Notes under the pieces: model-generated
What the model was told of the DNA's origin: nothing
The model's input: only the letters and a program-made list of their open reading frames with translations
Database searches by the model: none
Program-made: the position numbers and the translations under genes
Assembly (NCBI GenBank): GCA_030054035.1
Contig: JASGCS010000008.1
Location: forward strand, 34,801 to 77,856
DNA length: 43,056 bases
Reading direction: 5' to 3'
DNA from: Candidatus Methylacidiphilales bacterium
GTDB taxonomy: Bacteria > Pseudomonadota > Gammaproteobacteria > JASGCS01
Part shown: positions 2,391-43,056 of the stretch, in pieces
How the letters are laid out: each line of letters opens with the position of its first letter
Numbering within the stretch: the first letter of the stretch is position 1

Positions 2391-5300
2391 TTAGGTGGCA
2401 TCAAGGAGATTTTGGTCAATGCCGTATAGGGCACATACTTTTTCATCAAGTAGTCGCTCAACTTGAATCAAGGCACTCTCTGCTTCTGGCTCTGAGATCA
2501 CTTTATCAAACTGATCGCATTTAATTTTATATGCTTTATCATAAATCTGAATGAACTCTCTATGCTGTTCTGGGGTAGGAATAACTATAGGTACTAATCT
2601 AGCGTCATTAATTTGAAAGGTCTGTGTGTTACATATAAAGTAAGAGATATATTTATTAATAAAACTGGAGTTTAGTATGCAAATAATAAATTTGTCTGAA
2701 ACGGTTTTTATAGTACTTGAAAGGCTCATACTTTTCACATCATGTACACTTATTGATTTAATTCTTGCTTTTACATTAAGGGTGTGTATATCGCTCCAGC
2801 AAAATCCTTCTTTAAAATAGAAATGTGAATTTTGAAACCTTGGCATACCAATGTCTTTCTTTCCAGTATTATCTTTTAACCACTTTACATTTTCATATGA
2901 CCAATCTATATAGTATGGGGTTCTGAGATACCATCTATTGCCGTCCTTATCGCCTTTCTCATAGGGAACAAATGTTGGGCCTCTTTTAATGCCTTCTAAT
3001 TTTTCTGTTTCAGTTATTTTATTTACATCTTTAACCTCAGATTTATCTACAATTCTATAAAGAAATCCTCGGCTTAGTATATCTCTATCGTATTTATTTT
3101 TTAATGCATCAATTATATCTCTTATTTCATATTCGGTTAGTGTATCTAATGCAGATTGAATTTTTTCTTCATTGGTGCCGTATGTTTTAATATTATTATC
3201 AATTAGAAATTTTGTCAGCTTTTTTATTCTTTTTGTTGATGTGGTAGTGGCTTCTTTTGTTGATTGTAACACTCCTACAAATTTACCATTATTAGCAGTA
3301 GCTAGTCCTTGGCCTCCTTGAGTTATCAACCCCATGAGTGTTATATCACCAGGTAAGAGTTCTTTTCCATATTTGTCAAGGTATGATTTATTATTCTTTA
3401 TTTTAGTTGCTGTACCCATTATGTTTTGGTGGGTAAGCAGTAATTTTTTTATCGGTTGATTATATCTATCATAAATTAACATGCTTAAAGGTGTTGGTTT
3501 GAAAATGACATTGTTAGTTGCATTACAGTAAGTCTTTTGTAAGATGGTTGTTTCAATTGGTGTTGTTACATCATTGTTTTTTAGGGTGAGATACTTAATA
3601 GTATTTGAATTTGGAGGAGTTTTCTGAAGAATAACAACACTGGTAGAGACTAATACCTTATCAAAAGGGTTTTCAGTATCAAATAAGATCAGAATCTTAT
3701 TTTTTAAAAGCTCCTCTCTTAAGTTTGTTTTAGTTACGGTTGAGTAATAAGTATTACTTGTAATGTAGGCCACGATGCCTTCTTTTTTGCATAGTTCTAT
3801 TCCCTTAAAGAAGAAGTGGGAGTACAAATCATCGCTATAATTATAGTATTTTTTTAATTGCTTTTTGTATTCTTCACTTATTCCTTTAGTTGATACATAT
3901 GGTGGATTGCTTATTACTATATCAAACTCTTTTATTCCTCCAAACATTAACTCTGAGTTAAAAAATAGCGCTTGGGAGTCTGGAGTAAATGGTCGGTAAG
4001 ATGATAGGCTGTGTTGAACAGATTTTGTGTCTTGTTCAGGAAGTTTAGATATCAGTTTTTCATAATCATCTTGAATTTTTTGTTTTTGTTTTTTATCACT
4101 TGGTTTAAAATAAGCCTTGATTAGTTCTGATATATCTTTGAATAGTGTTCTATGTTCAAAGAAGCTAGTATCTGTATCTAGTTTCATTAGTGAGTCTGCA
4201 CAAATAAATTTAAAGTCTAGGTTAGGAAGTTCGTCAATGCCACTATTTGACAAGCTTGGTTTTAGGGTGGCATCTACGATGAGGGTGAGCCACGCTCTAA
4301 GTCTGGCTATTTCAACAGCCATAGGCTCTATATCTACTCCATAGATATTATTTTTTATGATTTTTAGCTTTGTTTTATACCGATCTTTAGTGCCTAGTTT
4401 ATCATCATCAGAATCAAGTTGTTCGTAATAGGCGATGAGTTTGAGGAGCATGCTGATGGGGAATGCTCCAGAGCCGCAGGCAGGATCAATAATTTTAATA
4501 TTATCTAATGATTCTTGAACTTTGTATTTAAGATGCTGGAAGTTGCTATTATTGGTGGTTTGGTTTTTGTTGTTGGTAGCTTCTAAAACTTGATCTATGA
4601 ATTCTCTGATATTAGGTTCGTTTTTATGTTCATTGATTAAATATGCTTGGAGGCTTTCTTTGCACATGTACTCTACGATTTCTTTGGTAGTATAGTATGC
4701 TCCTTTTGATTTTCGCTCAGATTTACCTGAATCGGTCAGTTCTTGGCTGAGAAGCTCTTCAAATATCTTGCCGAGCATTTCTGGATCTATAGCGATTTGT
4801 TGGTAGTCTTGGGTGCTTTCATCAGTGGTGAAATTGTAGCTAGTTAGTGTTTTAATCAGTTTCTTGAAATAGTCTATTGGAAAGATATGAATTTTAGTGT
4901 GATATTTTTTATTAATTATTTCTTTGTCAGTTTCTTTTAGTTCAAACAATCCTCCATTAAGGTATGGTGTCTCCAAGTCTGCGTCTATTTCTAGACCTCT
5001 TTCTTCTTGGGGAGTGTTTAAAGTTTGGAAGAATAGTTTATGGAGTTTTTGTTTGTAGTAGTCAGTGGAGTTTAAAGTTTCAACTTCAAAATAATTTTGT
5101 TTTGGAGAAATCAGTTCTTTTTTCTTTAGGAACCAGCAAAATAACATTCTGCCAATTAGTCTATTTACAAAGCGAGGTCTGTCAGTATTTTCAAATATAT
5201 CGTTTTTATTAAAGTGTGAAATTAACTCAACAAAATATTTATGGATATCAGAATAGAATTCTTCGTTTAGAGGTTGAATACTAAATGAGTTCCAGAGGAG

Positions 5301-5846
5301 CTCGTGTAGTTCTTTTTTTGTTTTGAGCGTAGATGCTCGGTGCCAATGCTCAAATATTTTCTGCTGTGTATTAGATAATATATTTTGTAACTCAAGCACT
5401 CTCAACTTGTAATTGTTGGATAATACTATTGAAACTGATTCCAGATTAGGCGCGATGATTATATCTATTCCAATTTTATAGCTTGCATACATAGGCTCAT
5501 CTTCAAAATTAGAGTTAAGGGTTGTGATATTTTTAATATTCCGCTTAGTTGGTTTGTGTAGCCAAAATAGATGCGCTTCAAAATTATCATTAAGATTTTT
5601 ATTATTACTAAACTCAATCTCATAGCTCGCAAATCTATCACCAAATCCATGGGCTAGCTTTAGCAATCTATCAATCTTGCCGCCAAAATCTACTTGCGTA
5701 ATAGTTACCTGAGTTGCGCCAAGTAGAGACAATACCGACTCAACAACTTGTCTGGCATTAGGAAACGAAGGGTGTGTTTTTAGTAATTTTAATGCGCTAT
5801 TTAGACCATCAAAGGATGGCGAAGTGCTATGAGTTTTTAGCTGCAT
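2391..5846 (-). CDS. Eco57I/PglX-class adenine-specific DNA methyltransferase
   Basis: The 1151-residue protein carries the N6-adenine methyltransferase signatures. A motif X-like GAYYTTKEIVEYM lies at about 382-394, the AdoMet-binding DPACGSGAF at 454-462, and the catalytic NPPY at 647-650. The N-terminal ~380 residues are helical and show no obvious PD-(D/E)XK nuclease motif. The C-terminal ~450 residues fit a target-recognition region of the TaqI/Eco57I type, ending in helices. Its length is normal for PglX or type IIG-like enzymes. The ATG at 5846 lies inside the end of the upstream PLD-helicase gene (20-nt overlap), so the two are translationally coupled. Inference: it methylates host DNA so that the partner helicase-nuclease can tell self from foreign DNA. 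Target sequence is unknown. Confidence 0.88.
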   Translation of the reverse strand: MQLKTHSTSPSFDGLNSALKLLKTHPSFPNARQVVESVLSLLGATQVTITQVDFGGKIDRLLKLAHGFGDRFASYEIEFSNNKNLNDNFEAHLFWLHKPTKRNIKNITTLNSNFEDEPMYASYKIGIDIIIAPNLESVSIVLSNNYKLRVLELQNILSNTQQKIFEHWHRASTLKTKKELHELLWNSFSIQPLNEEFYSDIHKYFVELISHFNKNDIFENTDRPRFVNRLIGRMLFCWFLKKKELISPKQNYFEVETLNSTDYYKQKLHKLFFQTLNTPQEERGLEIDADLETPYLNGGLFELKETDKEIINKKYHTKIHIFPIDYFKKLIKTLTSYNFTTDESTQDYQQIAIDPEMLGKIFEELLSQELTDSGKSERKSKGAYYTTKEIVEYMCKESLQAYLINEHKNEPNIREFIDQVLEATNNKNQTTNNSNFQHLKYKVQESLDNIKIIDPACGSGAFPISMLLKLIAYYEQLDSDDDKLGTKDRYKTKLKIIKNNIYGVDIEPMAVEIARLRAWLTLIVDATLKPSLSNSGIDELPNLDFKFICADSLMKLDTDTSFFEHRTLFKDISELIKAYFKPSDKKQKQKIQDDYEKLISKLPEQDTKSVQHSLSSYRPFTPDSQALFFNSELMFGGIKEFDIVISNPPYVSTKGISEEYKKQLKKYYNYSDDLYSHFFFKGIELCKKEGIVAYITSNTYYSTVTKTNLREELLKNKILILFDTENPFDKVLVSTSVVILQKTPPNSNTIKYLTLKNNDVTTPIETTILQKTYCNATNNVIFKPTPLSMLIYDRYNQPIKKLLLTHQNIMGTATKIKNNKSYLDKYGKELLPGDITLMGLITQGGQGLATANNGKFVGVLQSTKEATTTSTKRIKKLTKFLIDNNIKTYGTNEEKIQSALDTLTEYEIRDIIDALKNKYDRDILSRGFLYRIVDKSEVKDVNKITETEKLEGIKRGPTFVPYEKGDKDGNRWYLRTPYYIDWSYENVKWLKDNTGKKDIGMPRFQNSHFYFKEGFCWSDIHTLNVKARIKSISVHDVKSMSLSSTIKTVSDKFIICILNSSFINKYISYFICNTQTFQINDARLVPIVIPTPEQHREFIQIYDKAYKIKCDQFDKVISEPEAESALIQVERLLDEKVCALYGIDQNLLDAT

Positions 5847-8800
5847 AATAGATCACTACTTCTGCTTTGTCTGGCTTTATCACAGAAATCTCAGAGTCAT
5901 TTAAATTTTTAGCGATAGTAATTAATGAATTAATATATTTGGTATTATTCTTTTGTTGTTTTTCATTTTGTATGATGGCTCTTACTAGACTGTCAATTTC
6001 TTTTTTTTCAATATGGTTAGTAGTTACAAATGCTTGCTGTACCATTTGTATAGTCTCAGGGCTATGATGATATTTATTATATAAGATATCAATCACTTCT
6101 TTTTTAGTGCCTTTAGCATGGGAAGGATTTTTTACCTTATTCTCATAATACTCTGGATTACTTGCTTGATTTTTGATTGCCCTTTTATCAAGTGTTATTT
6201 TATCGCTTTCTTTTCTATTGTTTTCAGGATTAGTTTTGATTAATTGCAATGCGTCAAGCAATGGTAAAAAGCTAATCGTAGAATCGTTTGTTGCGTCATT
6301 GGGGTTAATAGCAATAAACTGTGGTATCTGAAGAATGTTATCTTTGTAGAGTCGCGCTAATACAACGACCTCATGGTCATGCGAGAGATGGGTGGGTAAT
6401 TTTGCCCATTTACCATCTGCAATCCCAAATATTTTCTTTTTATATTCTTCTGTTATGGATGGATCATTATAAAACTTCTTTAAGTCAAGGATATAATCAT
6501 CTTCTACAGACATAAAATCGCCAGTCTCTTCTAATTGTTCAAACGCTCCCTTTCTGACTTTTTCGTTATCGCTGTAGAGTTCTTTTAGGCTTTCTATATA
6601 TTCAATTGGGTTGGCTACTTCGCCAAGCACTGATTGATCATTTCCGATGGTGTTATTGATCATGCTAATCTTGCCTTCTAATCTTTTAACAAGCTGTAAA
6701 TAATACTCTAATTTTGTTTGGGGACTCATATTATAGATAAACACCTCATTAAAAGGTGATCCAAGTCTGTTGATTCTTCCATTTCTTTGAATCATTCTGA
6801 CTGGATTCCAATGTAAATCATAATTGATAATAACTCCACAATCTTGAAGATTGTGTCCTTCAGCTAATACATCTGTTGTGAAGAGAAATTGGAGTTCTTG
6901 TTGATCGGCTTTAAATTGGTATTTTTTAGAGTTAGGTGAGAATAACGATGCGTAATGGTTGGCTTTACTTCTATTGGCTGAGGTAATAAAAGCGGCTTGA
7001 TCTGGCTTTAAAAAAGATTTGCTTAGCTCTGTTTCTAGGTACTGAACGGTGTCGGCAAAATAAGAAAAAACTAAAACTTTATTATTTCCTTCGGGCTTAT
7101 CTGTACTGATACGTGTTAGTAGCTTCTTCAACTCATTAAGCTTAGCGTCGTTGTTATTAAAGAATTGTAGTTGCAGTCTAATGATTCTAATAAGTTCGTA
7201 TTCTTTTTCTATATCTGCTAGAAGTGCCGGAATATTAAATTGGTTTACGTCAATAGTAGCTAGAACCTTGAGTTGTTTTTCAGAAAGGGTGTCTTCAATT
7301 TCTTCTAATATCTCATCTTCATCATCTCGTAGTGCTTCTTTATAATTCTCATCGTCCTCAATACCCTCTATGATATTATTTTTAATGCCATTATGAAACA
7401 TTTTTAATTTTTTCTCATATTTATCTATAGATTTAGAAATTGCAAATGCCGATGATTCCATTCTTTTTAGAAACATAGTTCTGAATATTCCGTAAATACC
7501 TCGTTGTTGCTGAAGCTCTCTGCTCTTATCACCCGGTAATGCAAGCTCCGCTATCTGCTCGGGAGATTTGCCGTAGTATTCATTGTAATAAATTCTCCAG
7601 CGATAGGGGACGAAGCCTAGTAATAGAATTAGTTGATAGACAAAATAAATGGGTGATTCGTTTTGCAATTCACTCTCACTGATCTGATTGGGAACTAGTT
7701 CTAGCTGATCAAGCGGATGTTTTAAGTTATCACAATATTCAATTATCTCTTCTGGGTTTTTAGAATATAGAAACTTCAAATCAAACTTCTCACTGGAAAG
7801 TGAGAGCAGCTTCTTTAATAGCTCATGTGATAACTGGTATGGATGGTTCTTTGGGGTAGATTCAGGAAAGCCAACATCTTTTCCATTTATTTTTAACTTT
7901 CCATATTCTCGGATAATTCCTTGTCTGGTTCTTCTAACTACGACACTTCTTATAATCGGGCCAATCACTTTTCTAATTTCTTGATAGTCAATAGGTTTAT
8001 TCATTGAGATATTTTTTTTAAGCTTTTTTTCCAGCTCTTCTATTACTTTTACAAAATCCTTGGTGGTTGTTTTACCAGTCTTTGAATTTTGAACATGGAC
8101 TTTCAGAAGGTCCCCATACCCTCTGGTACCAAGTAAAAATTGATTTGAAATATCTTTTAGTTCATTATTAATCGGAGTTGCGGTTAGCAACATGACATGA
8201 GCATTGGGATTTTGTTTAATCCATTGCAATAATTTCAAGTATCGCTCTCCCCCTGTTCTTCTTAGATTATGCGACTCATCGATAACAAACAAACTAACTG
8301 AAGCTATAGCATCTAGTTGCATTTCTTCTTGGATGGCATTTGAGTTTTGTAAAACAATAGGTGTGAGTTCTATATTATTTGACAATAGTTCATACTTCCA
8401 TTGTTCTTTAATAGACTTTGGACAAATAACTACAACTCGCTTTCTCCCTTCTTTGCTATTTCTGTATTGCTGAATTACCCCAATTGCTGTAATGGTCTTA
8501 CCAAGCCCAACGGAATCAGCAAGCATGGCAACTTTATATTTATTAAGTTTTTTTATTAAATGTTGAACATTTATATTTTGAAAAGCTAATAAATCTATCC
8601 CTGTTGCAAAATTAAATTGTAGTGGCGCTCCTTCTATTTCATCACTATATAATTCATACAGGGTACGAATGTAGGTTTCATACGGGCTAAAGAGCATATC
8701 ACCAACTGGGGACTCTTCTAGCAATTGTTTAAATTTACCATCCCAACTAACAGATCTAGAATCATTCCACATCTCTTCAAACCAATACAAATGTCCTGGG

Positions 8801-9321
8801 GGGTCGGTTTCACTTTGTGGTCTAAATTTAATTATCTGGGTTTGATCTTCGGCATTGTTAAGCTCAATATTAGAATGCAAGCCATTGTAAGTAAAATTAG
8901 AAGAGCCAATAATGCCGATTGGTCTTTCATCTTTGGCATTACCAAGAATATAACATTTAGCATGCATGAAGCTCTCTCTGAATAGTTTCACTTCAAGAAC
9001 GCCAGCGTCAATCATATTTTTAATGTCAGTAATTAGTTTTTTATATTTAGGATCATGCTCAAGCATAGATAAGTCTTTAAAAATATCAATTTCAGGATAT
9101 GGCTGTGAGTATTCATCTTTAGATTTATAGCGAGGACTTACTGGTTCTTGTCCGATGAGTAATCTGATTTTTTTATAACTGGATATTGCATCTATGACGG
9201 AATGCATACCGGGCAAATCCCAGTATCCTGTAGCAATAGATAAATCTTTGAAACTTCCAGCATGCTTGTTAAGAAAATCAACAAGTCGCAAGCGCTTATT
9301 ATCAATTATTTTATTACCCAT
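5827..9321 (-). CDS. PLD-like nuclease / SNF2-type helicase fusion protein
   Basis: The start is taken at ATG 9321 (MGNKIIDN, 1164 residues); a TTG at 9336 would add five residues. The N-terminal ~180 residues form a phospholipase-D-like module with HAKCYI at about 120-125 and GSSNFTYNG about 15 residues later (one HxK-type half-site). A superfamily 2 SNF2-like helicase follows: GLGKT at ~272-276, DESH at ~348-351 and TATP at ~380-383. The C-terminal lobe has LVFSYFADT, TTDVLAEGHNLQ and the arginine-finger motif QRNGRINRLGS. An acidic helical insert lies between the lobes. Overlap with the methyltransferase gene implies one complex or pathway. The architecture recalls the PLD, helicase and methylase parts of DISARM-like and other restriction systems, but no DUF1998 partner is present. 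Role as the restricting component is inferred. Confidence 0.85.
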   Translation of the reverse strand: MGNKIIDNKRLRLVDFLNKHAGSFKDLSIATGYWDLPGMHSVIDAISSYKKIRLLIGQEPVSPRYKSKDEYSQPYPEIDIFKDLSMLEHDPKYKKLITDIKNMIDAGVLEVKLFRESFMHAKCYILGNAKDERPIGIIGSSNFTYNGLHSNIELNNAEDQTQIIKFRPQSETDPPGHLYWFEEMWNDSRSVSWDGKFKQLLEESPVGDMLFSPYETYIRTLYELYSDEIEGAPLQFNFATGIDLLAFQNINVQHLIKKLNKYKVAMLADSVGLGKTITAIGVIQQYRNSKEGRKRVVVICPKSIKEQWKYELLSNNIELTPIVLQNSNAIQEEMQLDAIASVSLFVIDESHNLRRTGGERYLKLLQWIKQNPNAHVMLLTATPINNELKDISNQFLLGTRGYGDLLKVHVQNSKTGKTTTKDFVKVIEELEKKLKKNISMNKPIDYQEIRKVIGPIIRSVVVRRTRQGIIREYGKLKINGKDVGFPESTPKNHPYQLSHELLKKLLSLSSEKFDLKFLYSKNPEEIIEYCDNLKHPLDQLELVPNQISESELQNESPIYFVYQLILLLGFVPYRWRIYYNEYYGKSPEQIAELALPGDKSRELQQQRGIYGIFRTMFLKRMESSAFAISKSIDKYEKKLKMFHNGIKNNIIEGIEDDENYKEALRDDEDEILEEIEDTLSEKQLKVLATIDVNQFNIPALLADIEKEYELIRIIRLQLQFFNNNDAKLNELKKLLTRISTDKPEGNNKVLVFSYFADTVQYLETELSKSFLKPDQAAFITSANRSKANHYASLFSPNSKKYQFKADQQELQFLFTTDVLAEGHNLQDCGVIINYDLHWNPVRMIQRNGRINRLGSPFNEVFIYNMSPQTKLEYYLQLVKRLEGKISMINNTIGNDQSVLGEVANPIEYIESLKELYSDNEKVRKGAFEQLEETGDFMSVEDDYILDLKKFYNDPSITEEYKKKIFGIADGKWAKLPTHLSHDHEVVVLARLYKDNILQIPQFIAINPNDATNDSTISFLPLLDALQLIKTNPENNRKESDKITLDKRAIKNQASNPEYYENKVKNPSHAKGTKKEVIDILYNKYHHSPETIQMVQQAFVTTNHIEKKEIDSLVRAIIQNEKQQKNNTKYINSLITIAKNLNDSEISVIKPDKAEVVIYYAAKNS

Positions 9322-9387
9322 ATAGCCTATTATCAAGCATAGTGAGTATATTTTATGTTAGAAACTCAATTTCACTTACAATATCAG

Positions 9388-32352: not shown

Positions 32353-33498
32353 ATGAAAAGGGATCTTGATTCAGTTATCAGCAATTCAATCAATGCAAAG
32401 CCAGTAATACTGGTTGGGGCTAGGCAAGCTGGCAAAACCACCCTAGCCAAGATGATTGCAAGTCAAGCTAATGGTTACCAGTATTTTAACTATGATGTTG
32501 CTGAAGACAGGAAAATAATTCTAAAGCAAGCATGGGATTCCTATTCCTCTGTGCTTATCCTAGATGAAATACAGAAGATGAAGCAGTGGAAGACATGGCT
32601 AAAAGGAGTGATTGATAGTAAAAAACCAAAGATGAAGTTACTCGTTACTGGGAGTATGAAATTAAATCTATTGCGAAGGAGCGGCGATTCACTAGCAGGC
32701 AGATATCTACAGCATCATTTATATCCTGTAACAATAGCTGAACTACAGCAGGAATATAGTTGGGACGCACAGCAATCACTAGAACATCTCTTGCGGCGAG
32801 GTGGCTTTCCAGAACCATGTCTAGCAACTAATGACGCTACTGCACAACAATGGCACAACCAATACGCACGAGACATTATTAGGAACGATCTATTAGAACT
32901 AGACTCTATTAGAAGTATTAGTAGTATTGATGTGCTCTATGAGGAACTTAGGAGCAAAGTTGGATCTCCCCTATCAATCACAGCCCTCGCTAGAGATATT
33001 GGACTTAGCCATCATCTCGTACAGAAATACCTAACACTGTTTGAAGCAGTGTTTTTACTTTTTAAAATTACCCCTTGGCACAAAAACATAGCACATGCAA
33101 ACAAACTACAACCAAAATATTATTTTTACGATGTCTCGCAAGTAAAAAGATCAAGAGGCGTAACGCTTGAAAACATTGTCGCAATAGAACTCCACCAATG
33201 GGTACAGCTACAAAATGACTTAGGTAAGGGAAGCTATGCACTTCATTACATAAGAACAAAAGATGATGCAGAAGTAGATTTCGTAATTAGCAACCATAAC
33301 ACACCTACCCTACTCATAGAATGCAAACAAAGCGACGGCAAACCAAGCAAAAGTCTAATCAATATAGCTAAACGATGTGGCAACGCAGAAACTATACAGC
33401 TGGTTGAACAAATTAATCACCCCTACAAAGTAGGTAGCGTTGCCATTCAACCAATGGCGCAATGGCTGGTCAACTACTGCTCTATCAAAATAATGTAA
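32353..33498 (+). CDS. AAA-family ATPase with DUF4143 C-terminal domain
   Basis: The 381-residue protein has a P-loop GARQAGKTT at residues 22-30, Walker B VLILDE at 67-72 and a sensor region LLVTGSMKLNLLRRSGDSLAGR. The rest is the DUF4143 region, which begins with a winged-helix-like part (SITALARDIGLSHHLVQKYL). It ends in a PD-(D/E)XK-like core, EVDFVI then LLIECKQ. Such proteins are common accessory ATPases of uncertain role; ATP-dependent DNA or protein handling is inferred only. The ATG at 32353 is preceded by TATAGG. It converges with the nuclease-helicase operon. Confidence 0.8.
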   Translation: MKRDLDSVISNSINAKPVILVGARQAGKTTLAKMIASQANGYQYFNYDVAEDRKIILKQAWDSYSSVLILDEIQKMKQWKTWLKGVIDSKKPKMKLLVTGSMKLNLLRRSGDSLAGRYLQHHLYPVTIAELQQEYSWDAQQSLEHLLRRGGFPEPCLATNDATAQQWHNQYARDIIRNDLLELDSIRSISSIDVLYEELRSKVGSPLSITALARDIGLSHHLVQKYLTLFEAVFLLFKITPWHKNIAHANKLQPKYYFYDVSQVKRSRGVTLENIVAIELHQWVQLQNDLGKGSYALHYIRTKDDAEVDFVISNHNTPTLLIECKQSDGKPSKSLINIAKRCGNAETIQLVEQINHPYKVGSVAIQPMAQWLVNYCSIKIM

Positions 33499-33679: not shown

Positions 33680-34531
33680 TTATAAATACATTTCAATATC
33701 AAATTCAGTATCTGTATCATCTGATAAGATTTTATCTTTTATCTCTTTGGGATTAGTTGATGAAACGAAAGCTTTGTACGATTCGCAGGAAAAGCGCACA
33801 TCACAATGGCGACACACTTCAGATCCAAATGGTCTTTTAGAAACTGGCATTACTTTTTTCAATACGCTGGGTGGTGGTGGATTAAATTTGTAGTCTTCTA
33901 TTTGGTCAACTATTTCTTTGCAGTCAGCGATTGTCTCTCGCGCAAGTTTAGCATTGGTATTAATCTGGAGAATAGGGTCCCAATCACGAATAAAAGAGTC
34001 TAATGTGGCGTTAGATTGGATTACACTTGATGAAGACTCAGGAGTTAGGTACAATTTTTTTATTTCTTGCTTAATATGTCTAGGTACGGAAGTAGAAATA
34101 ACATAGGTGTTGGTTATGCTTTTGTCCTTATTATTAATATTCTTGCTCCAAATTTCTTTGCAGAGAGAAAGTTGTTTTTCACATTGAATTGCTATATCGG
34201 TGAGATATTCTTTGGGTTGTGTTTTAATTTCAAATAAAGCGGCACTCATTTCTACATCATCATATTGCATGATATCAACTACACCTTGAAGTGAGCATAC
34301 TCTTCCTTTGGTGGTATTAATATTATTCTCTTGAATTTTTTCTTCGCTGGCAATGATACTATTTTTCATTTGCTCATGTTTCAGCCAGTAAGCAACTACT
34401 TCAATATACGCATTAGTAATAACATGGTTATTGAGTGTGTGGCTACCTTGTGATTTAATTTCATTGACATTATTATCAAAGTACTCCCGTATTTTTGCGA
34501 GATGATGCTTTGATATTACACTTTCACTCAT
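33680..34531 (-). CDS. PD-(D/E)XK (Cas4/RecB-type) nuclease domain protein
   Basis: The 283-residue protein has the catalytic pattern GVVDIM (D86) and FEIKTQ (E101-x-K103). A C-terminal cysteine set, C240-x2-C243-x5-C249 (VCRHCDVRFSC), resembles the last three ligands of the 4Fe-4S cluster in AddB/Cas4-like nucleases. The usual first Cys and the alpha-helical opening of this domain are absent here but are found at the end of the upstream helicase (QQCPRKY). The start overlaps the helicase stop as ATGA, so both are made together. The most likely role is the nuclease half of a split helicase-nuclease acting on DNA ends or foreign DNA. Confidence 0.75.
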   Translation of the reverse strand: MSESVISKHHLAKIREYFDNNVNEIKSQGSHTLNNHVITNAYIEVVAYWLKHEQMKNSIIASEEKIQENNINTTKGRVCSLQGVVDIMQYDDVEMSAALFEIKTQPKEYLTDIAIQCEKQLSLCKEIWSKNINNKDKSITNTYVISTSVPRHIKQEIKKLYLTPESSSSVIQSNATLDSFIRDWDPILQINTNAKLARETIADCKEIVDQIEDYKFNPPPPSVLKKVMPVSKRPFGSEVCRHCDVRFSCESYKAFVSSTNPKEIKDKILSDDTDTEFDIEMYL

Positions 34532-37164
34532 GATGATTTGTTTTGTTTTTGCAAGAGCTCATAGTTGTGCATATCATTAATTGTTTTAAACACCAGAGCA
34601 CCATACTGTGGGCCAATTTCTCGAGATGGAGTAAATCCAAACATTCGGTAAAACATATACTTCCTTGGGCATTGTTGATAAGAATTAATATCAGCACTGA
34701 GACTATAACTCTTTCCCAAACTAACTGTTTGTTTTTTTTCTTCATGAACACATTGATATACTTCTGATAAGGAAATACTATTTAAACTGTCAGTAATTGT
34801 TTTAAGTGAATCAATGCGATTTTGTTTTTTAAATCGCAACATAATCAGCGTATTTTTTGCTCTACTCATCGCGACATAAAATAATCTTGCAGTATCATAC
34901 AGGGTAAGCTTAGCAATCGGTTCTAGCTGTTCTGGTGGCATAGTACTGTAACGGGGGATTACTTTCCTTATAAATGATTCAAGCACATTAACCTCATTTT
35001 TCTTTTTGTATAAATTGCCAAGAATAACTACGGGAAACTCCAATCCTTTTGATTGATGAATGGTGATAATGGGGACTCTGCCTTTGGGGAATGGGTCATC
35101 AGAGTCTTCGTGCTCTTTTATTTCCTGTAAATACATTGCCCGCAAATAACTTGAAAATCCTTTATGGTAAAACTTTGGCAAAATAGAAAATGATGGATTG
35201 TCATCGTCGTCTTCATCTTCTTTAGATTGGGTGAGATTGGCAAACTCTAGGGCAGAGTTAAGTTGTTTGGCGTAACCCATTTCAACTAAGGTGTTTAAAA
35301 AATCACTAATAGCAGAGAGCGTGTGCATGACAGTTACATCTTCATTGCTGGAGTTTTTATCTATGCTGAGCTGTTTTGAAAAATAACTAAACGAAAGTAG
35401 TTTATAGAATATATCTAGGAAACCATAATCAGAAGTAGAAGCGTAGGAGAGCATTCGTCTGAGTGGGTAACGGCTCATCCCATGCTCCATTAATTTATTT
35501 TGCCTTAACGATTTTGCGATTTGATTTTTTGCACTAACACCTTTGAGCAATGCGGCAAGATTTTCTTCACTTATTTTTTGGTCGCGATCTATTGCGCATT
35601 GAGCTATGCGTTCTGTTATTTCTTCAAGCCACACACATTGCAGTGCAATTTCTTTGGATAAGTTCTTGCAATATTTTTTTAACTCAGTGTCTTCTCGCAT
35701 CTCCTCATGCGCCCGTTGAAGCACTGCTGGTATCCATGTTTTTAATTCACCAAAGATTTTTTTATCATACCCATAGATAGTGCAGAGTAAACCCACCATC
35801 ACTTTGCTGACATCTTGTTCTAACATTAAACTCGCTCGTGGGCAATAGCTGGGTAGCCCGCTTTCGGCTAATGCTGATCGCAATTCTGATAAAAATTTAT
35901 TTCCTTGTAAATAGGTAAATAAAATGGCAATTTGATTGTAGTCGCTGACTTTGCCCTCTGATTTTAATTTTTTAATTAACAAAACAAGATTGGCTATAGC
36001 ATCTTCTTTAGAGTCTTGTTCATCGGTTACACAAACACTTAGGATTGCATCTGAATTGCGATTTTTACGATGGACTTGTAATTCCTTTTTGATATGAAAT
36101 AGTGAGTTCTTTCCCCAATCTTGGCTTTCCATAAAATTCTGATAGGTGGTTACAATCTCTGGCAATGAGCGATAATTGGTATTCAGTGAAATCATAGTTG
36201 GCCGCATAGCTAAATAATGTTGGCATCGTAAATCAAATTGGGTGAAGTTTGTAACGGTAGCACCACGAAAGCGGTATAGGGACTGATCATCATCACCGAC
36301 CACACATATATGGCTACCGGCTTTAGTCAACGCAAAGAATAATTGCTCTTGCACATGGTTGGTGTCTTGATACTCATCAATTATCACATGAGCAAAAGGG
36401 CTGATTTTCAATCTCACTACTCTATGTAACGCATCCTTCTGCATTAATGATAAATCACTGTAGCTATTTTCTGTGAGTGAGTTAACATAATATTGATACA
36501 TTCTAAGTAAGCGTGAATCTAGATCATCGCCGACGCAATCAAGACTAGTATCAAATAACTCTTCGGAGAGACGATTAAACAATGAGATTACATTGTCGGT
36601 AAATTTATGCCGCGAAGTAGAATTAGTCTTCCCTAAATATTCATTTACTTCGGGAATAAAAGTCTCAATGCTCGTAGAGTTAATCCCAGCAAACTCAAGC
36701 ATGGTATTCATAAAGGTATAGTTGTGTACATAGAGATATTGCTTAAACTCATCAAGTACCATGGGCACCTTTTTGCGCTCTCTGGCAACATCAAAATCTC
36801 TACTCCCAAGGATACGATAACAATTCGAATGGATGGTGCCTACGAACATCCCGGCGATATCTATGGATTCACCACTCACCTTTTGATATGAAGATAATAG
36901 TAGCTTTAATCCCTCAACTAATTCACGCGCAGCTTTTTTGGTAAAGGTACATAATAAGATTTCACTTGGCTTCACACCTCGATTGACCAATAAATTGAAT
37001 GTGCGCCACAATAATACTCGGGTTTTGCCTGACCCAGGTGCTGCACTTAAAAACAAAGGGCTTCTTCCCTCATATAGAATAGCTTGTGCTTGTTCAGGGT
37101 TAGGTCTAAAACCTAATTGAGACCAGTACTGTTCAAGGGTTTTCATTTCAGAAGCCAAAGACAT
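34528..37164 (-). CDS. UvrD/Rep-type superfamily 1 DNA helicase carrying the first part of a nuclease domain
   Basis: The 878-residue protein has all SF1A motifs: AAPGSGKT (41-48), CTFTKKAARE, IIDEYQDT (261-268), VVGDDDQSLYRFRGA, LNTNYRS, ITIHQSKGLEFP and LFYVAMSRAKN. It ends with SLSADINSYQQCPRKY and about 45 further residues including GALVFKTINDMH. This is how AddB/RecB/PcrA-fused nuclease domains begin (first Fe-S Cys, here C832, and a G-x-x-H-like motif). The frame then stops and the nuclease continues in the next gene. The ATG at 37164 has no good ribosome-binding site; ATG 37146 is an alternative. A repair or anti-phage helicase-nuclease is inferred. Confidence 0.85.
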   Translation of the reverse strand: MSLASEMKTLEQYWSQLGFRPNPEQAQAILYEGRSPLFLSAAPGSGKTRVLLWRTFNLLVNRGVKPSEILLCTFTKKAARELVEGLKLLLSSYQKVSGESIDIAGMFVGTIHSNCYRILGSRDFDVARERKKVPMVLDEFKQYLYVHNYTFMNTMLEFAGINSTSIETFIPEVNEYLGKTNSTSRHKFTDNVISLFNRLSEELFDTSLDCVGDDLDSRLLRMYQYYVNSLTENSYSDLSLMQKDALHRVVRLKISPFAHVIIDEYQDTNHVQEQLFFALTKAGSHICVVGDDDQSLYRFRGATVTNFTQFDLRCQHYLAMRPTMISLNTNYRSLPEIVTTYQNFMESQDWGKNSLFHIKKELQVHRKNRNSDAILSVCVTDEQDSKEDAIANLVLLIKKLKSEGKVSDYNQIAILFTYLQGNKFLSELRSALAESGLPSYCPRASLMLEQDVSKVMVGLLCTIYGYDKKIFGELKTWIPAVLQRAHEEMREDTELKKYCKNLSKEIALQCVWLEEITERIAQCAIDRDQKISEENLAALLKGVSAKNQIAKSLRQNKLMEHGMSRYPLRRMLSYASTSDYGFLDIFYKLLSFSYFSKQLSIDKNSSNEDVTVMHTLSAISDFLNTLVEMGYAKQLNSALEFANLTQSKEDEDDDDNPSFSILPKFYHKGFSSYLRAMYLQEIKEHEDSDDPFPKGRVPIITIHQSKGLEFPVVILGNLYKKKNEVNVLESFIRKVIPRYSTMPPEQLEPIAKLTLYDTARLFYVAMSRAKNTLIMLRFKKQNRIDSLKTITDSLNSISLSEVYQCVHEEKKQTVSLGKSYSLSADINSYQQCPRKYMFYRMFGFTPSREIGPQYGALVFKTINDMHNYELLQKQNKSS

Positions 37165-39761: not shown

Positions 39762-42700
39762 TTACAGGCCAAGCGAGCAAATTAGCTTACTTGTTTCTGC
39801 AAGCAATCCTGATTTATCACAGCTAAATCCTAGTGAGCCAACTAGGTTGTAGAGAAGTTCAGAGATAAACCCTTCATATTTTGCTTTCTTTTGTTTGGTT
39901 TTAACTAAAGCAGTTGCAACAATAGGAGTGGTGTCTGTATTTGTTTTATAAATATTAACTACTCCAGTAGTGCCACTTGCTTTGATTAAATCTATTGCTG
40001 ATTGTGCCTTATCAGTAACTCCACCTAATCTAATTAAGTACGCTATGTTGCCGAGCGGGACATTAACAGAGAGAGAGGTAAAATCTGGTGTTTCATTTAC
40101 AGCACTTGATATAACTAGTTTATTAGTGATGCTTGCTATGTCACCACTAGTAGTCATAAGTGATAGCGCAGGTGATCTAATATGGTATGTATTAGTTGAA
40201 AGCGATGACGCGGTAATTATTCTTGCGGTAATTGTTACAGAATTAGCGGTAATTGAGAACGATGAGAAATCAATACTACCATTAGTTGCGCTGTTGTCTG
40301 TGGCTCTAAAAATAAGAGTAGCAGTTGGTCTGTTTATGTTGGAGGAGAGTGTTAGATTTCCAGAAGTTTGTTCAAGGGAGAGGATGCCTGACGAGAAAGT
40401 ATTTATGGTGGCATTGAGAAGACCTATGCTTGCTGATTTAAGGTAGATGTTTCCTGCAGCTGCGGTGGTGAGCAAGAGGTTAGATGATGACCATGCGCTT
40501 GGTCCTGAGATAGTGAGGCTGTTGGTGCTATCTGCTACGCTACCATTGGTTGCCTTGAGAGTGAGGATGCCTGATGAACCAACAGAAATCGTTCCAGTAG
40601 TGGTGGTGATGTTTCTGTAGGCATCAAGGGTAAGGAATGCTGCATTGATATTAAATGTACCAAGTGAGATGGAGCCATTGCCAGAAGTAGTGTCAGAAGC
40701 TTTAAGAATAACTGTAGCAGTTGGTCTGTTTAAGTTAGTGGAAAGAGATAAATTTCCAGAAGTTTGTTCTAGTGAGAGGGTGCCTGTTGAGAAGTTGTTG
40801 ATAGTAGCACCACCAAAAATACTGCTTGTTCTAATGTATATATTACCTGCAGCTGCAGTGGTGAGCAAGAGATTAGATGATGACCATGCGCTTGGTCCAG
40901 ATATGTTGAGGCTGTTGGTGTTATTTGCTATGCTGCCATTGGTTGCATTGAGAGTGAGGATGCCTGATGAAACGATAGTGATAGCTCCAGTGGTGGTAGT
41001 GATGTTTCTGTAGGCATCAAGGGTAAGCGATGCTGCATTGATATTAAATGTACCAAGTGAGATGGAGCCATTGCCAGAAGTAGTGTCAGAAGCTTTAAGA
41101 ATAAGAGTAGCAGTTGGTCTGTTTATGTTGGAGGAGAGTGTTAGATTTCCAGAAGTTTGTTCAAGGGAGAGGATGCCTGACGAGAAAGTATTTATGGTGG
41201 CATTGAGAAGACCTATGCTTGCTGATTTAAGGTAGATGTTTCCTGCAGCTGCGGTGGTGAGCAAGAGGTTAGATGATGACCATGCGCTTGGTCCTGAGAT
41301 AGTGAGGCTGTTGGTGCTATCTGCTACGCTACCATTGGTTGCCTTGAGAGTGAGGATGCCTGATGAACCAACAGAAATCGTTCCAGTAGTGGTGGTGATG
41401 TTTCTGTAGGCATCAAGGGTAAGGAATGCTGCATTGATATTAAATGTACCAAGTGAGATGGAGCCATTGCCAGAAGTAGTGTCAGAAGCTTTAAGAATAA
41501 CTGTAGCTGTTGGTCTGTTTAAGTTAGTGGAAAGAGATATATTTCCAGAAGTTTGTTGAAGGGAGAGGGTGCCTGTTGAGAATGTGTTTATGGTGGCATT
41601 GAGAAGACCTGAGCTTGCTGATTTAAGGTAGATGTTTCCTGCAGCAGCAGTGGTAAGCAAGAGGTTAGATGATGACCATGCGCTTGGTCCAGCGATGGTG
41701 AGGCTGTTGGTGTTATCTCCAATGCTACCATTGTTTGCCTTGAGAGTGAGGGTGCCTGATGAGCCAACAGAAATCGTTCCAGTAGTGGTGGTGATGTTTC
41801 TGTAGGCATCAAGGGTTACATTTGTAGCATACATGATATATGAGGAAATCATAATAGAGCCATTACCAGTTGTATTGTCAGTGGTTTTAAGAATAAGTGT
41901 AGCGGAAGGATACAACGGGTTTGATGTGAGAGATAGGTTTCCAGAAGTTTGTTCTAGGGAGAGGATTCCAGCCAAGAATGTGTTTATGGTGGCATTGAGA
42001 AGACCTGAGCTTGCTGATTTAAGGTAGATGTTTCCTGCAGCAGCAGTGGTGAGCAAGAGGTTAGTGGATGTCCATGCGCTTGGTCCAGAGATGGTGAGAC
42101 TGTTTGTGCTATCACCAATACTACCATTGGTTGCCCTGAGCGTAAGGGTGCTTGATGTGCCAATTGAAATAGAGCCGTTCATACCACTAATATTCCTAGT
42201 GGTTGTGAGGGTTACATTGCCTCCTGATATATTGCCTCGTATATTAATATCAGCATTCGCTGCTGTACTTACAATGGAGATATTATTAGTAGAAGCAGTC
42301 GCACCAGAAATTGCTCCAAGTGAGAGCGAAGAAGTTCGTGATCTGATGAAAACATTACCGCTAGATGCGGTTGCGGATAACTCGCCTGTTTGAGAGTCTT
42401 GGGCAACGAAGATGGGTTCAGCTGAAGTACCGATAGAACCATTAGTTGAGGTCAATGCAATAGTTCCTGAATATGAGGTAACTGTAGATAAAGGAGAGCT
42501 TATAGTGTAATCAGTACTAAATGCTGAAGGAGGTTGTGAGTCAAAAATTATTTGCGTAAGACCGCCATCAATTATAATTGAAGTAACAGTATATACCGTA
42601 GAATTAACTTCTAATAGATCACCTACACTAATAGGCCTAGAATTAGAAAAATAAGCTATGTAAAAGGAACCACCATTTGGTATTGCGCCATACTGTGATA

Positions 42701-43056
42701 CCCGATATATGGAGCTAGAAAAAAACCTAGTAATATCCCCTTCAGCTGAAAGAGTTACTGAATTAGCAGATATATTTCGATGGAAAACAAGAGCGGAACC
42801 TGATGTTATTGTGATAGTGCCTGTGCCTTGTGCTGTAATTGCTTGTGAGATATTTATATTGTCATTGGTGCCTGTGCATACAGAACCAGTACAGGTAGTA
42901 GTTAATGATAGATTAACATTATTGGCAAGGGTTAATCCTGAAGTAAAGGTGCCGCTCATGGAAATTCCATTAAGTGCGGAGAGAGTGATGGTTCCAGAAG
43001 TAATTGCCTCTAGGGTATTTTCGTAAATATTTGAAGTTCCTAATCCAGCTGTAGCA
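39762..43056 (-). CDS. Filamentous-haemagglutinin-like repetitive surface protein (5' end beyond window)
   Basis: The frame is open through the right edge, so at least 1097 residues are present and the N-terminal secretion (TPS) domain is not seen. The translation is Ser/Thr/Asn/Gly-rich with short beta-strand motifs typical of a long parallel beta-helix (NGSI, AAAGNIYLKS, TSGNLSL). Five units of 131-132 residues cover roughly the second to fourth fifth. A unique C-terminal region follows, ending in FSCDKSGLLAETSKLICSLGL (two cysteines 14 apart; no autotransporter barrel or LPXTG). A two-partner-secreted adhesin is the best reading, but no TpsB transporter gene is in the window. Confidence 0.75.
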   Translation of the reverse strand, partial: ATAGLGTSNIYENTLEAITSGTITLSALNGISMSGTFTSGLTLANNVNLSLTTTCTGSVCTGTNDNINISQAITAQGTGTITITSGSALVFHRNISANSVTLSAEGDITRFFSSSIYRVSQYGAIPNGGSFYIAYFSNSRPISVGDLLEVNSTVYTVTSIIIDGGLTQIIFDSQPPSAFSTDYTISSPLSTVTSYSGTIALTSTNGSIGTSAEPIFVAQDSQTGELSATASSGNVFIRSRTSSLSLGAISGATASTNNISIVSTAANADINIRGNISGGNVTLTTTRNISGMNGSISIGTSSTLTLRATNGSIGDSTNSLTISGPSAWTSTNLLLTTAAAGNIYLKSASSGLLNATINTFLAGILSLEQTSGNLSLTSNPLYPSATLILKTTDNTTGNGSIMISSYIMYATNVTLDAYRNITTTTGTISVGSSGTLTLKANNGSIGDNTNSLTIAGPSAWSSSNLLLTTAAAGNIYLKSASSGLLNATINTFSTGTLSLQQTSGNISLSTNLNRPTATVILKASDTTSGNGSISLGTFNINAAFLTLDAYRNITTTTGTISVGSSGILTLKATNGSVADSTNSLTISGPSAWSSSNLLLTTAAAGNIYLKSASIGLLNATINTFSSGILSLEQTSGNLTLSSNINRPTATLILKASDTTSGNGSISLGTFNINAASLTLDAYRNITTTTGAITIVSSGILTLNATNGSIANNTNSLNISGPSAWSSSNLLLTTAAAGNIYIRTSSIFGGATINNFSTGTLSLEQTSGNLSLSTNLNRPTATVILKASDTTSGNGSISLGTFNINAAFLTLDAYRNITTTTGTISVGSSGILTLKATNGSVADSTNSLTISGPSAWSSSNLLLTTAAAGNIYLKSASIGLLNATINTFSSGILSLEQTSGNLTLSSNINRPTATLIFRATDNSATNGSIDFSSFSITANSVTITARIITASSLSTNTYHIRSPALSLMTTSGDIASITNKLVISSAVNETPDFTSLSVNVPLGNIAYLIRLGGVTDKAQSAIDLIKASGTTGVVNIYKTNTDTTPIVATALVKTKQKKAKYEGFISELLYNLVGSLGFSCDKSGLLAETSKLICSLGL
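40224..42200 (-). repeat. Five tandem ~396-bp coding repeats with a 789-bp higher-order period
   Basis: Unit starts (YRNITTTT) fall at 41804, 41408, 41012 and 40619, giving periods of 396, 396 and 393 bp; a diverged first unit begins near 42200. Bases 40311-40718 are identical to 41100-41507 (408 bp) although intervening units differ, so units 2-3 and 4-5 form a repeated dimer. Confidence 0.85.

What the first reader, a model, noticed from the sequence alone, without database searches (positions are those of the whole stretch)
34528..37164. Helicase-nuclease split inside the Fe-S nuclease domain
The UvrD-like protein ends in an unfinished AddB/Cas4-style nuclease opening (QQCPRKY, then G..H-like residues). 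The next gene, overlapping by ATGA, supplies D86, E101-x-K103 and the last three cysteines (C-x2-C-x5-C). In known fused enzymes all four cysteines sit in one chain and cage the domain, so here the cluster would have to bridge two polypeptides. This may be a natural two-subunit form, or a single ancestral gene recently split. No -1 slippery heptamer was found at the junction, which favours stop-restart translation.
Basis: partly seen in the sequence, partly recalled or inferred. Interest (0 to 1): 0.65.

Follow-up and report, generated by a model that had tools for sequence, protein, structure and literature searches.

The report
Helicase-nuclease gene split mid-domain
A bacterial DNA helicase-nuclease that is one protein in almost all its relatives is here encoded as two overlapping genes, cut inside the nuclease part so that its metal-binding cysteines sit on two chains; it may be a natural two-part enzyme, but it has also lost a key catalytic residue and could be a recently broken gene.

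Summary
ORFs 37164-34528(-) (878 aa) and 34531-33680(-) (283 aa) overlap by ATGA and together align end to end with a known ~960-aa family, the UvrD-Cas4-like helicase-nucleases, usually the first gene of a type III R-M operon. The break falls in a variable loop between two helices inside the 'iron-staple' PD-(D/E)XK domain. Cys1 (C832) is on the helicase chain; D86, E101-x-K103, Q120 and C240/C243/C249 are on the other. Of 31 relatives aligned, 28 are fused and one is interrupted in the helicase. Two (plus a third outside that set) are split upstream of Cys1, leaving all four cysteines on one chain. None is split like the window. New here: the catalytic His, present in all 31 relatives, is Phe859 in the window, and the QxxxY Tyr is Cys124, so the nuclease is probably weak, altered or dead. 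The two frames differ by one base, so a fission mutation, a recent frameshift and a sequencing error are not separable with one genome. Most likely a one-base fission of a UvrD-Cas4 protein whose chains reassemble. Cross-chain cluster binding is inferred; no complex could be folded here.

The parts
34528..37164 (-). UvrD-like SF1 helicase chain, 878 aa, ending in the first part of the iron-staple nuclease domain
   Evidence: (UvrD-helicase 4.1e-48, UvrD_C 2e-20)
34528..34722 (-). Helicase C-terminal arm (aa 815-878): Cys1 C832 in QQCPRKY, then GALVFKTIND, where the catalytic His of relatives is F859
34669..34671 (-). Codon of C832, equivalent of Cys1 of the four-cysteine staple
34588..34590 (-). 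Codon of F859, where all 31 relatives have the metal-ligand His (GxxxH)
34528..34531 (-). ATGA overlap: stop TGA of the helicase and start ATG of the nuclease, one frame apart; no Shine-Dalgarno upstream; any single-base insertion over a stretch of about 33 nt here would give one frame
33680..34531 (-). Nuclease chain, 283 aa: rest of the PD-(D/E)XK RecB/Cas4-like domain
   Evidence: PDDEXK_1 E=0.0025, below cut-off; E=1.2e-6
34223..34276 (-). D86 ... E101-x-K103 catalytic motif
33785..33814 (-). C240-x2-C243-x5-C249, the last three staple cysteines

Best explanation
The two ORFs are one UvrD-Cas4-like helicase-nuclease (the family usually found with type III restriction-modification) that was divided by a one-base frame change in the A-rich, length-variable loop between the GxxxH helix and the next helix of its iron-staple nuclease domain. 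The downstream half is translated by stop-restart at the ATGA. The helicase's C-terminal helical arm, with Cys1, docks onto the second chain, with Cys2-4 and D/E-x-K, so the domain is rebuilt from two polypeptides and the cluster would be shared between them. Because the His metal ligand and the QxxxY Tyr are gone, the rebuilt nuclease is probably weak, altered or purely structural, while the helicase motor is intact. Shown: family, colinearity, position of the break, residue states. Inferred: translation coupling, assembly, shared cluster, reduced activity.
For: End-to-end colinear alignment with ~960-aa fused relatives across the junction. The break maps to loop 52-59 between helices 30-51 and 60-75 of a confident model of a fused relative (L134, pLDDT 90). 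The second ORF's model has the same order of elements starting at that second helix, and its best folds include Cas4 SSO0001, AdnA and AddAB. The arm keeps family-level conservation (29% against 30% in fused pairs of equal helicase distance) although it would be useless without the other chain. All four Cys, G83, D86, E101, K103 and Q120 are kept. The second ORF is open for 283 codons with normal codon bias. In studied iron-staple nucleases, loss of a Cys makes the protein insoluble or labile (PMC3466216, PMC7430649), so the second chain alone should be unstable.
Against: No second genome shows this split. No complex was modelled. Loss of His (F859) and Tyr (C124) is not expected of a working nuclease. 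The nuclease half is more diverged (19% against a mean of 24% in comparable pairs). The second-ORF model is only moderately confident (pLDDT 66). No Shine-Dalgarno precedes the second start.
Confidence: 0.5

Rival explanations
1. Sequencing or assembly error: the true gene is one continuous frame and a single base was lost near the A-runs at the junction.
For: Any single-base insertion over about 33 nt (126 position-base combinations) yields one open frame of about 1161 codons. The stretch contains A5, A4 and A3 runs. No other genome shows the split.
Against: A5 is a short run. The ATGA stop-start junction is typical of real coupled genes, though expected by chance in a fair fraction of cases. 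The changes at F859 and C124 show the protein is atypical in any case.
Confidence: 0.22
2. Recent frameshift in a gene on its way to loss: the helicase may still work, and the nuclease half is drifting remains.
For: The catalytic His and the QxxxY Tyr are lost and the nuclease half is faster evolving. The genome is small, 1.7 Mb, and the usual type III R-M partner genes are not adjacent; a type III system sits on another contig without a UvrD-Cas4 gene.
Against: 283 codons without a stop, normal codon bias, three C-terminal Cys plus D, E, K and Q kept, and the arm still conserved.
Confidence: 0.2
3. One protein is made after all, by low-level -1 frameshifting or transcript slippage on the A-runs, with the two-ORF form as by-product.
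For: The frames differ by one step and A-runs lie in the overlap.
Against: No X-XXY-YYZ heptamer in frame. Local RNA structure is weak (z -1.56). A5 is shorter than usual slippage runs.
Confidence: 0.06

Closest known systems
UvrD-Cas4-like fusion helicase-nucleases (pfam12705 branch; Hudaiberdiev et al. 2017, PMC5704561)
   Same: Same helicase, same nuclease domain, same order, four staple cysteines, PD-(D/E)XK residues
   Different: Those are one chain; here the chain is cut inside the nuclease domain, the GxxxH His is Phe, and no Mod/Res genes adjoin
Two-gene UvrD/Cas4-like pairs (Clostridiales operons in PMC5704561; here L051, L145, L147)
   Same: Helicase and nuclease on separate, adjacent genes
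   Different: In L051, L145 and L147 the cut lies before Cys1, so the nuclease chain has all four Cys and the His; two of the three sit beside DpdA. For the Clostridiales operons the passage I read gives no cut position
AddAB / AdnAB / Dna2 / Bad iron-staple and RecB-type helicase-nucleases
   Same: Fold; in AddB, Dna2 and Bad also the four-Cys layout around a RecB-type nuclease
   Different: All four Cys on one chain, His ligand present (family knowledge)
RecC
   Same: Precedent for a nuclease-like domain that lost catalytic residues but stayed as a structural part of a helicase-nuclease (PMC1185551)
   Different: RecC is not split and lost all metal ligands

Membership tests
UvrD-Cas4-like fusion family | UvrD-type SF1 helicase motor with motifs intact | tested here: met
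   Walker A, DEYQD, GDDDQ, TIHQSKGLEFP, SRAK present
UvrD-Cas4-like fusion family | C-terminal PD-(D/E)XK domain colinear with the family | tested here: met
UvrD-Cas4-like fusion family | Helicase and nuclease in one polypeptide | tested here: not met
   separate frames, one base apart
UvrD-Cas4-like fusion family | Genomic link to type III R-M Mod/Res (common, not universal) | tested here: not met
   No Mod/Res beside it; a type III system lies on contig C6
Iron-staple (AddB/Cas4/Dna2) nuclease domain | Four Cys: one before motif I, then C-x2-C-x5-C | tested here: met
   All four positions present in the pair, but on two chains
Iron-staple (AddB/Cas4/Dna2) nuclease domain | Cysteines bind one 4Fe-4S cluster | not testable with these tools
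   Needs purified proteins; the structure tool folds single chains only
RecB-family nuclease active site | His of GxxxH | tested here: not met
   F859; His in 31/31 relatives
RecB-family nuclease active site | D ... (D/E)-x-K | tested here: met
   D86, E101, K103
RecB-family nuclease active site | QxxxY | tested here: not met
   Q120 kept, Tyr is C124

The most novel reading that the evidence does not exclude
A natural, stable two-chain iron-staple nuclease: an Fe-S cluster ligated by one Cys of a helicase and three of a separately translated subunit, with catalysis lost or re-tuned, so that the cluster acts as a clip holding motor and nuclease-like subunit together.
Probability: 0.25. Interest if true: 0.65.

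Novelty: new variant of a known kind. Interest (0 to 1): 0.4.

Why it matters
If the two chains do rebuild the domain, this would be a natural split within an iron-staple nuclease, making the cluster a removable link between motor and nuclease and giving a simple system for testing what the cluster is for. If it is a frameshift, it is an ordinary damaged member of a known defence-associated family.

Tried and rejected
Looked for the same split elsewhere: window proteins and family alignments against GTDB representative contigs, IMG/VR, plasmids, phages and about 770 genomes of the same class and phylum; none found. The genome contigs pattern scan was dominated by ordinary UvrD helicases, so its coverage of this family is partial. 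The interrupted plasmid copies L034, L035 and L036 were rejected as parallels because their breaks lie in the helicase. L051, L145 and L147 are real helicase/nuclease splits but before Cys1. A -1 frameshift site was rejected: no heptamer, weak RNA structure. The tree places the window on a long branch (2.52) near L134/L128/L142 without firm support, so the split was not dated.

Full report
CHECK. reproduce the two ORFs on the minus strand: helicase 37164 to 34528 (878 aa) and a second ORF 34531 to 33680 (283 aa), sharing ATGA. The numbering in the finding is right: C832 in the first, D86, E101, K103, C240, C243 and C249 in the second. One residue is not as implied: the helicase tail reads GALVFKTIND, where fused relatives read GTLVHQTIED, so the catalytic His is F859.

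FAMILY. tblastn of the helicase against plasmids finds ~965-aa single proteins matched over 88-97% of the query at about 27-31% identity in Spirosoma, Enterococcus, Nitrosomonas, Vibrio, Phaeobacter and others. In most records opened they are followed by a 'site-specific DNA-methyltransferase' and a DEAD/TnsA-N protein, that is type III Mod and Res. This is the UvrD-Cas4-like fusion described in PMC5704561, which reports the same type III R-M association and notes unfused UvrD/Cas4-like operons, mostly in Clostridiales. The nuclease ORF alone finds nothing by tblastn and only a sub-threshold Pfam PDDEXK_1 hit (E=0.0025). A profile of the family's C-terminal part, built without the window, finds it at E=1.2e-6.

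WHERE THE BREAK IS. The concatenated window proteins align with the fused family from end to end. After the GxxxH helix the fused chain has a short variable loop, then a helix. In L128 that helix reads 'DARIRELFE' (similar in L134 and L142), matching 'LAKIREYFD' near residues 11-19 of the second ORF. A model of the L134 domain (pLDDT 90, pTM 0.85) puts this loop at residues 52-59, between helices 30-51 and 60-75. The model of the window's second ORF (pLDDT 66, pTM 0.58) starts at that second helix and keeps the order helix, helix, three strands, helix, strand, helix. Foldseek on it ranks Cas4 SSO0001 first, with MGME1, AdnA and AddAB among the best; the fused control matches ACE1, AdnA, RecE, AddAB, Cas4 and Dna2. 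Spatial closeness of C832 to the other three was not computed for the window: the tool folds one chain and returns no coordinates.

HOW RARE. In 31 relatives aligned with the window, 28 carry helicase and nuclease on one uninterrupted chain. L036 is interrupted in the helicase. L051 (Ca. Thiosymbion) and L145 are split before Cys1; so is L147, outside that set. Their second ORFs have all four Cys and the His, and L051 and L145 lie beside a DpdA-type gene (PADLOC DpdA, E=4e-100 and 2e-122). Two-gene arrangements therefore occur in this family, but the in-domain cut was seen only in the window.

STATE OF THE NUCLEASE. Of 14 invariant columns of the fused domain, the pair keeps Cys1-4, two Gly, Glu, Asp, Lys and Gln and has Glu for Asp at E101. 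It loses His (F859), the QxxxY Tyr (C124) and the neighbouring Ala (K125). His is present in all 31 relatives. The nuclease half is somewhat more diverged than expected (mean identity 19.3% against 24.2% in pairs of similar helicase identity; second lowest of 32 residuals), while the Cys1 arm is not (29.4% against 30.5%). The helicase motifs are intact. PMC1185551 describes RecC as a nuclease-like domain kept for structure after losing its metal ligands, a precedent for a non-catalytic role.

ONE FRAME STEP. The two frames differ by one base. Any single-base insertion over about 33 nt gives one open frame of about 1161 codons, and the stretch has A5, A4 and A3 runs. So a fission by one deletion is simple, and a lost base in the assembly or a very recent mutation would look the same. 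No close relative was found in the collections, so the split cannot be dated and selection cannot be measured. The second ORF has normal codon bias, no Shine-Dalgarno (several other genes here lack one too) and weak local RNA structure.

CONTEXT. The pair stands between a sulfate-permease-family transporter gene and a DUF4143 AAA ATPase gene, both on the opposite strand. The genome's type III R-M (Res, an insert gene, Mod) is on another contig without a UvrD-Cas4 gene.

VERDICT. A member of the UvrD-Cas4-like family divided inside its iron-staple nuclease domain. Two-chain reassembly is the best single explanation, at about 0.5, because the arm and all four Cys are kept and because known iron-staple domains fail without a Cys. 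Frameshift, decay or error together are about as likely. Cross-chain cluster ligation and loss of activity are inferences.

Noticed in passing
window 2391-9336 (-): Type IIG/Eco57I-like methyltransferase next to a PLD(HKD)-SNF2 helicase; looks like a defence or R-M module about 25 kb from the finding.
   Followed up: partly
window 32353-33498 (+): DUF4143 AAA ATPase, strong match to PADLOC candidate PDC-S01, convergent with the nuclease gene.
   Followed up: no
L051, L145 (also L147, L036): UvrD/Cas4-like helicase and nuclease encoded as two genes beside DpdA-type transglycosylases (L051, L145); L147 beside a DUF6884/DpdC-like gene; L036 near QueC and FolE. Suggests this helicase-nuclease family also serves 7-deazaguanine DNA modification systems.
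   Followed up: partly
L232:2997-8762 (own genome, contig C6): Type III R-M with a 282-aa gene between Res and Mod; no UvrD-Cas4 gene beside it.
   Followed up: partly
L134:6832-10077: The nearest fused relative is followed by a 1081-aa Sacsin/NO VEIN-type protein matching PADLOC TmtA, a different partner from Mod/Res.
   Followed up: partly
window 39762-42959 (-): 1065-aa protein with long near-identical internal repeats, possibly a truncated surface protein.
   Followed up: no
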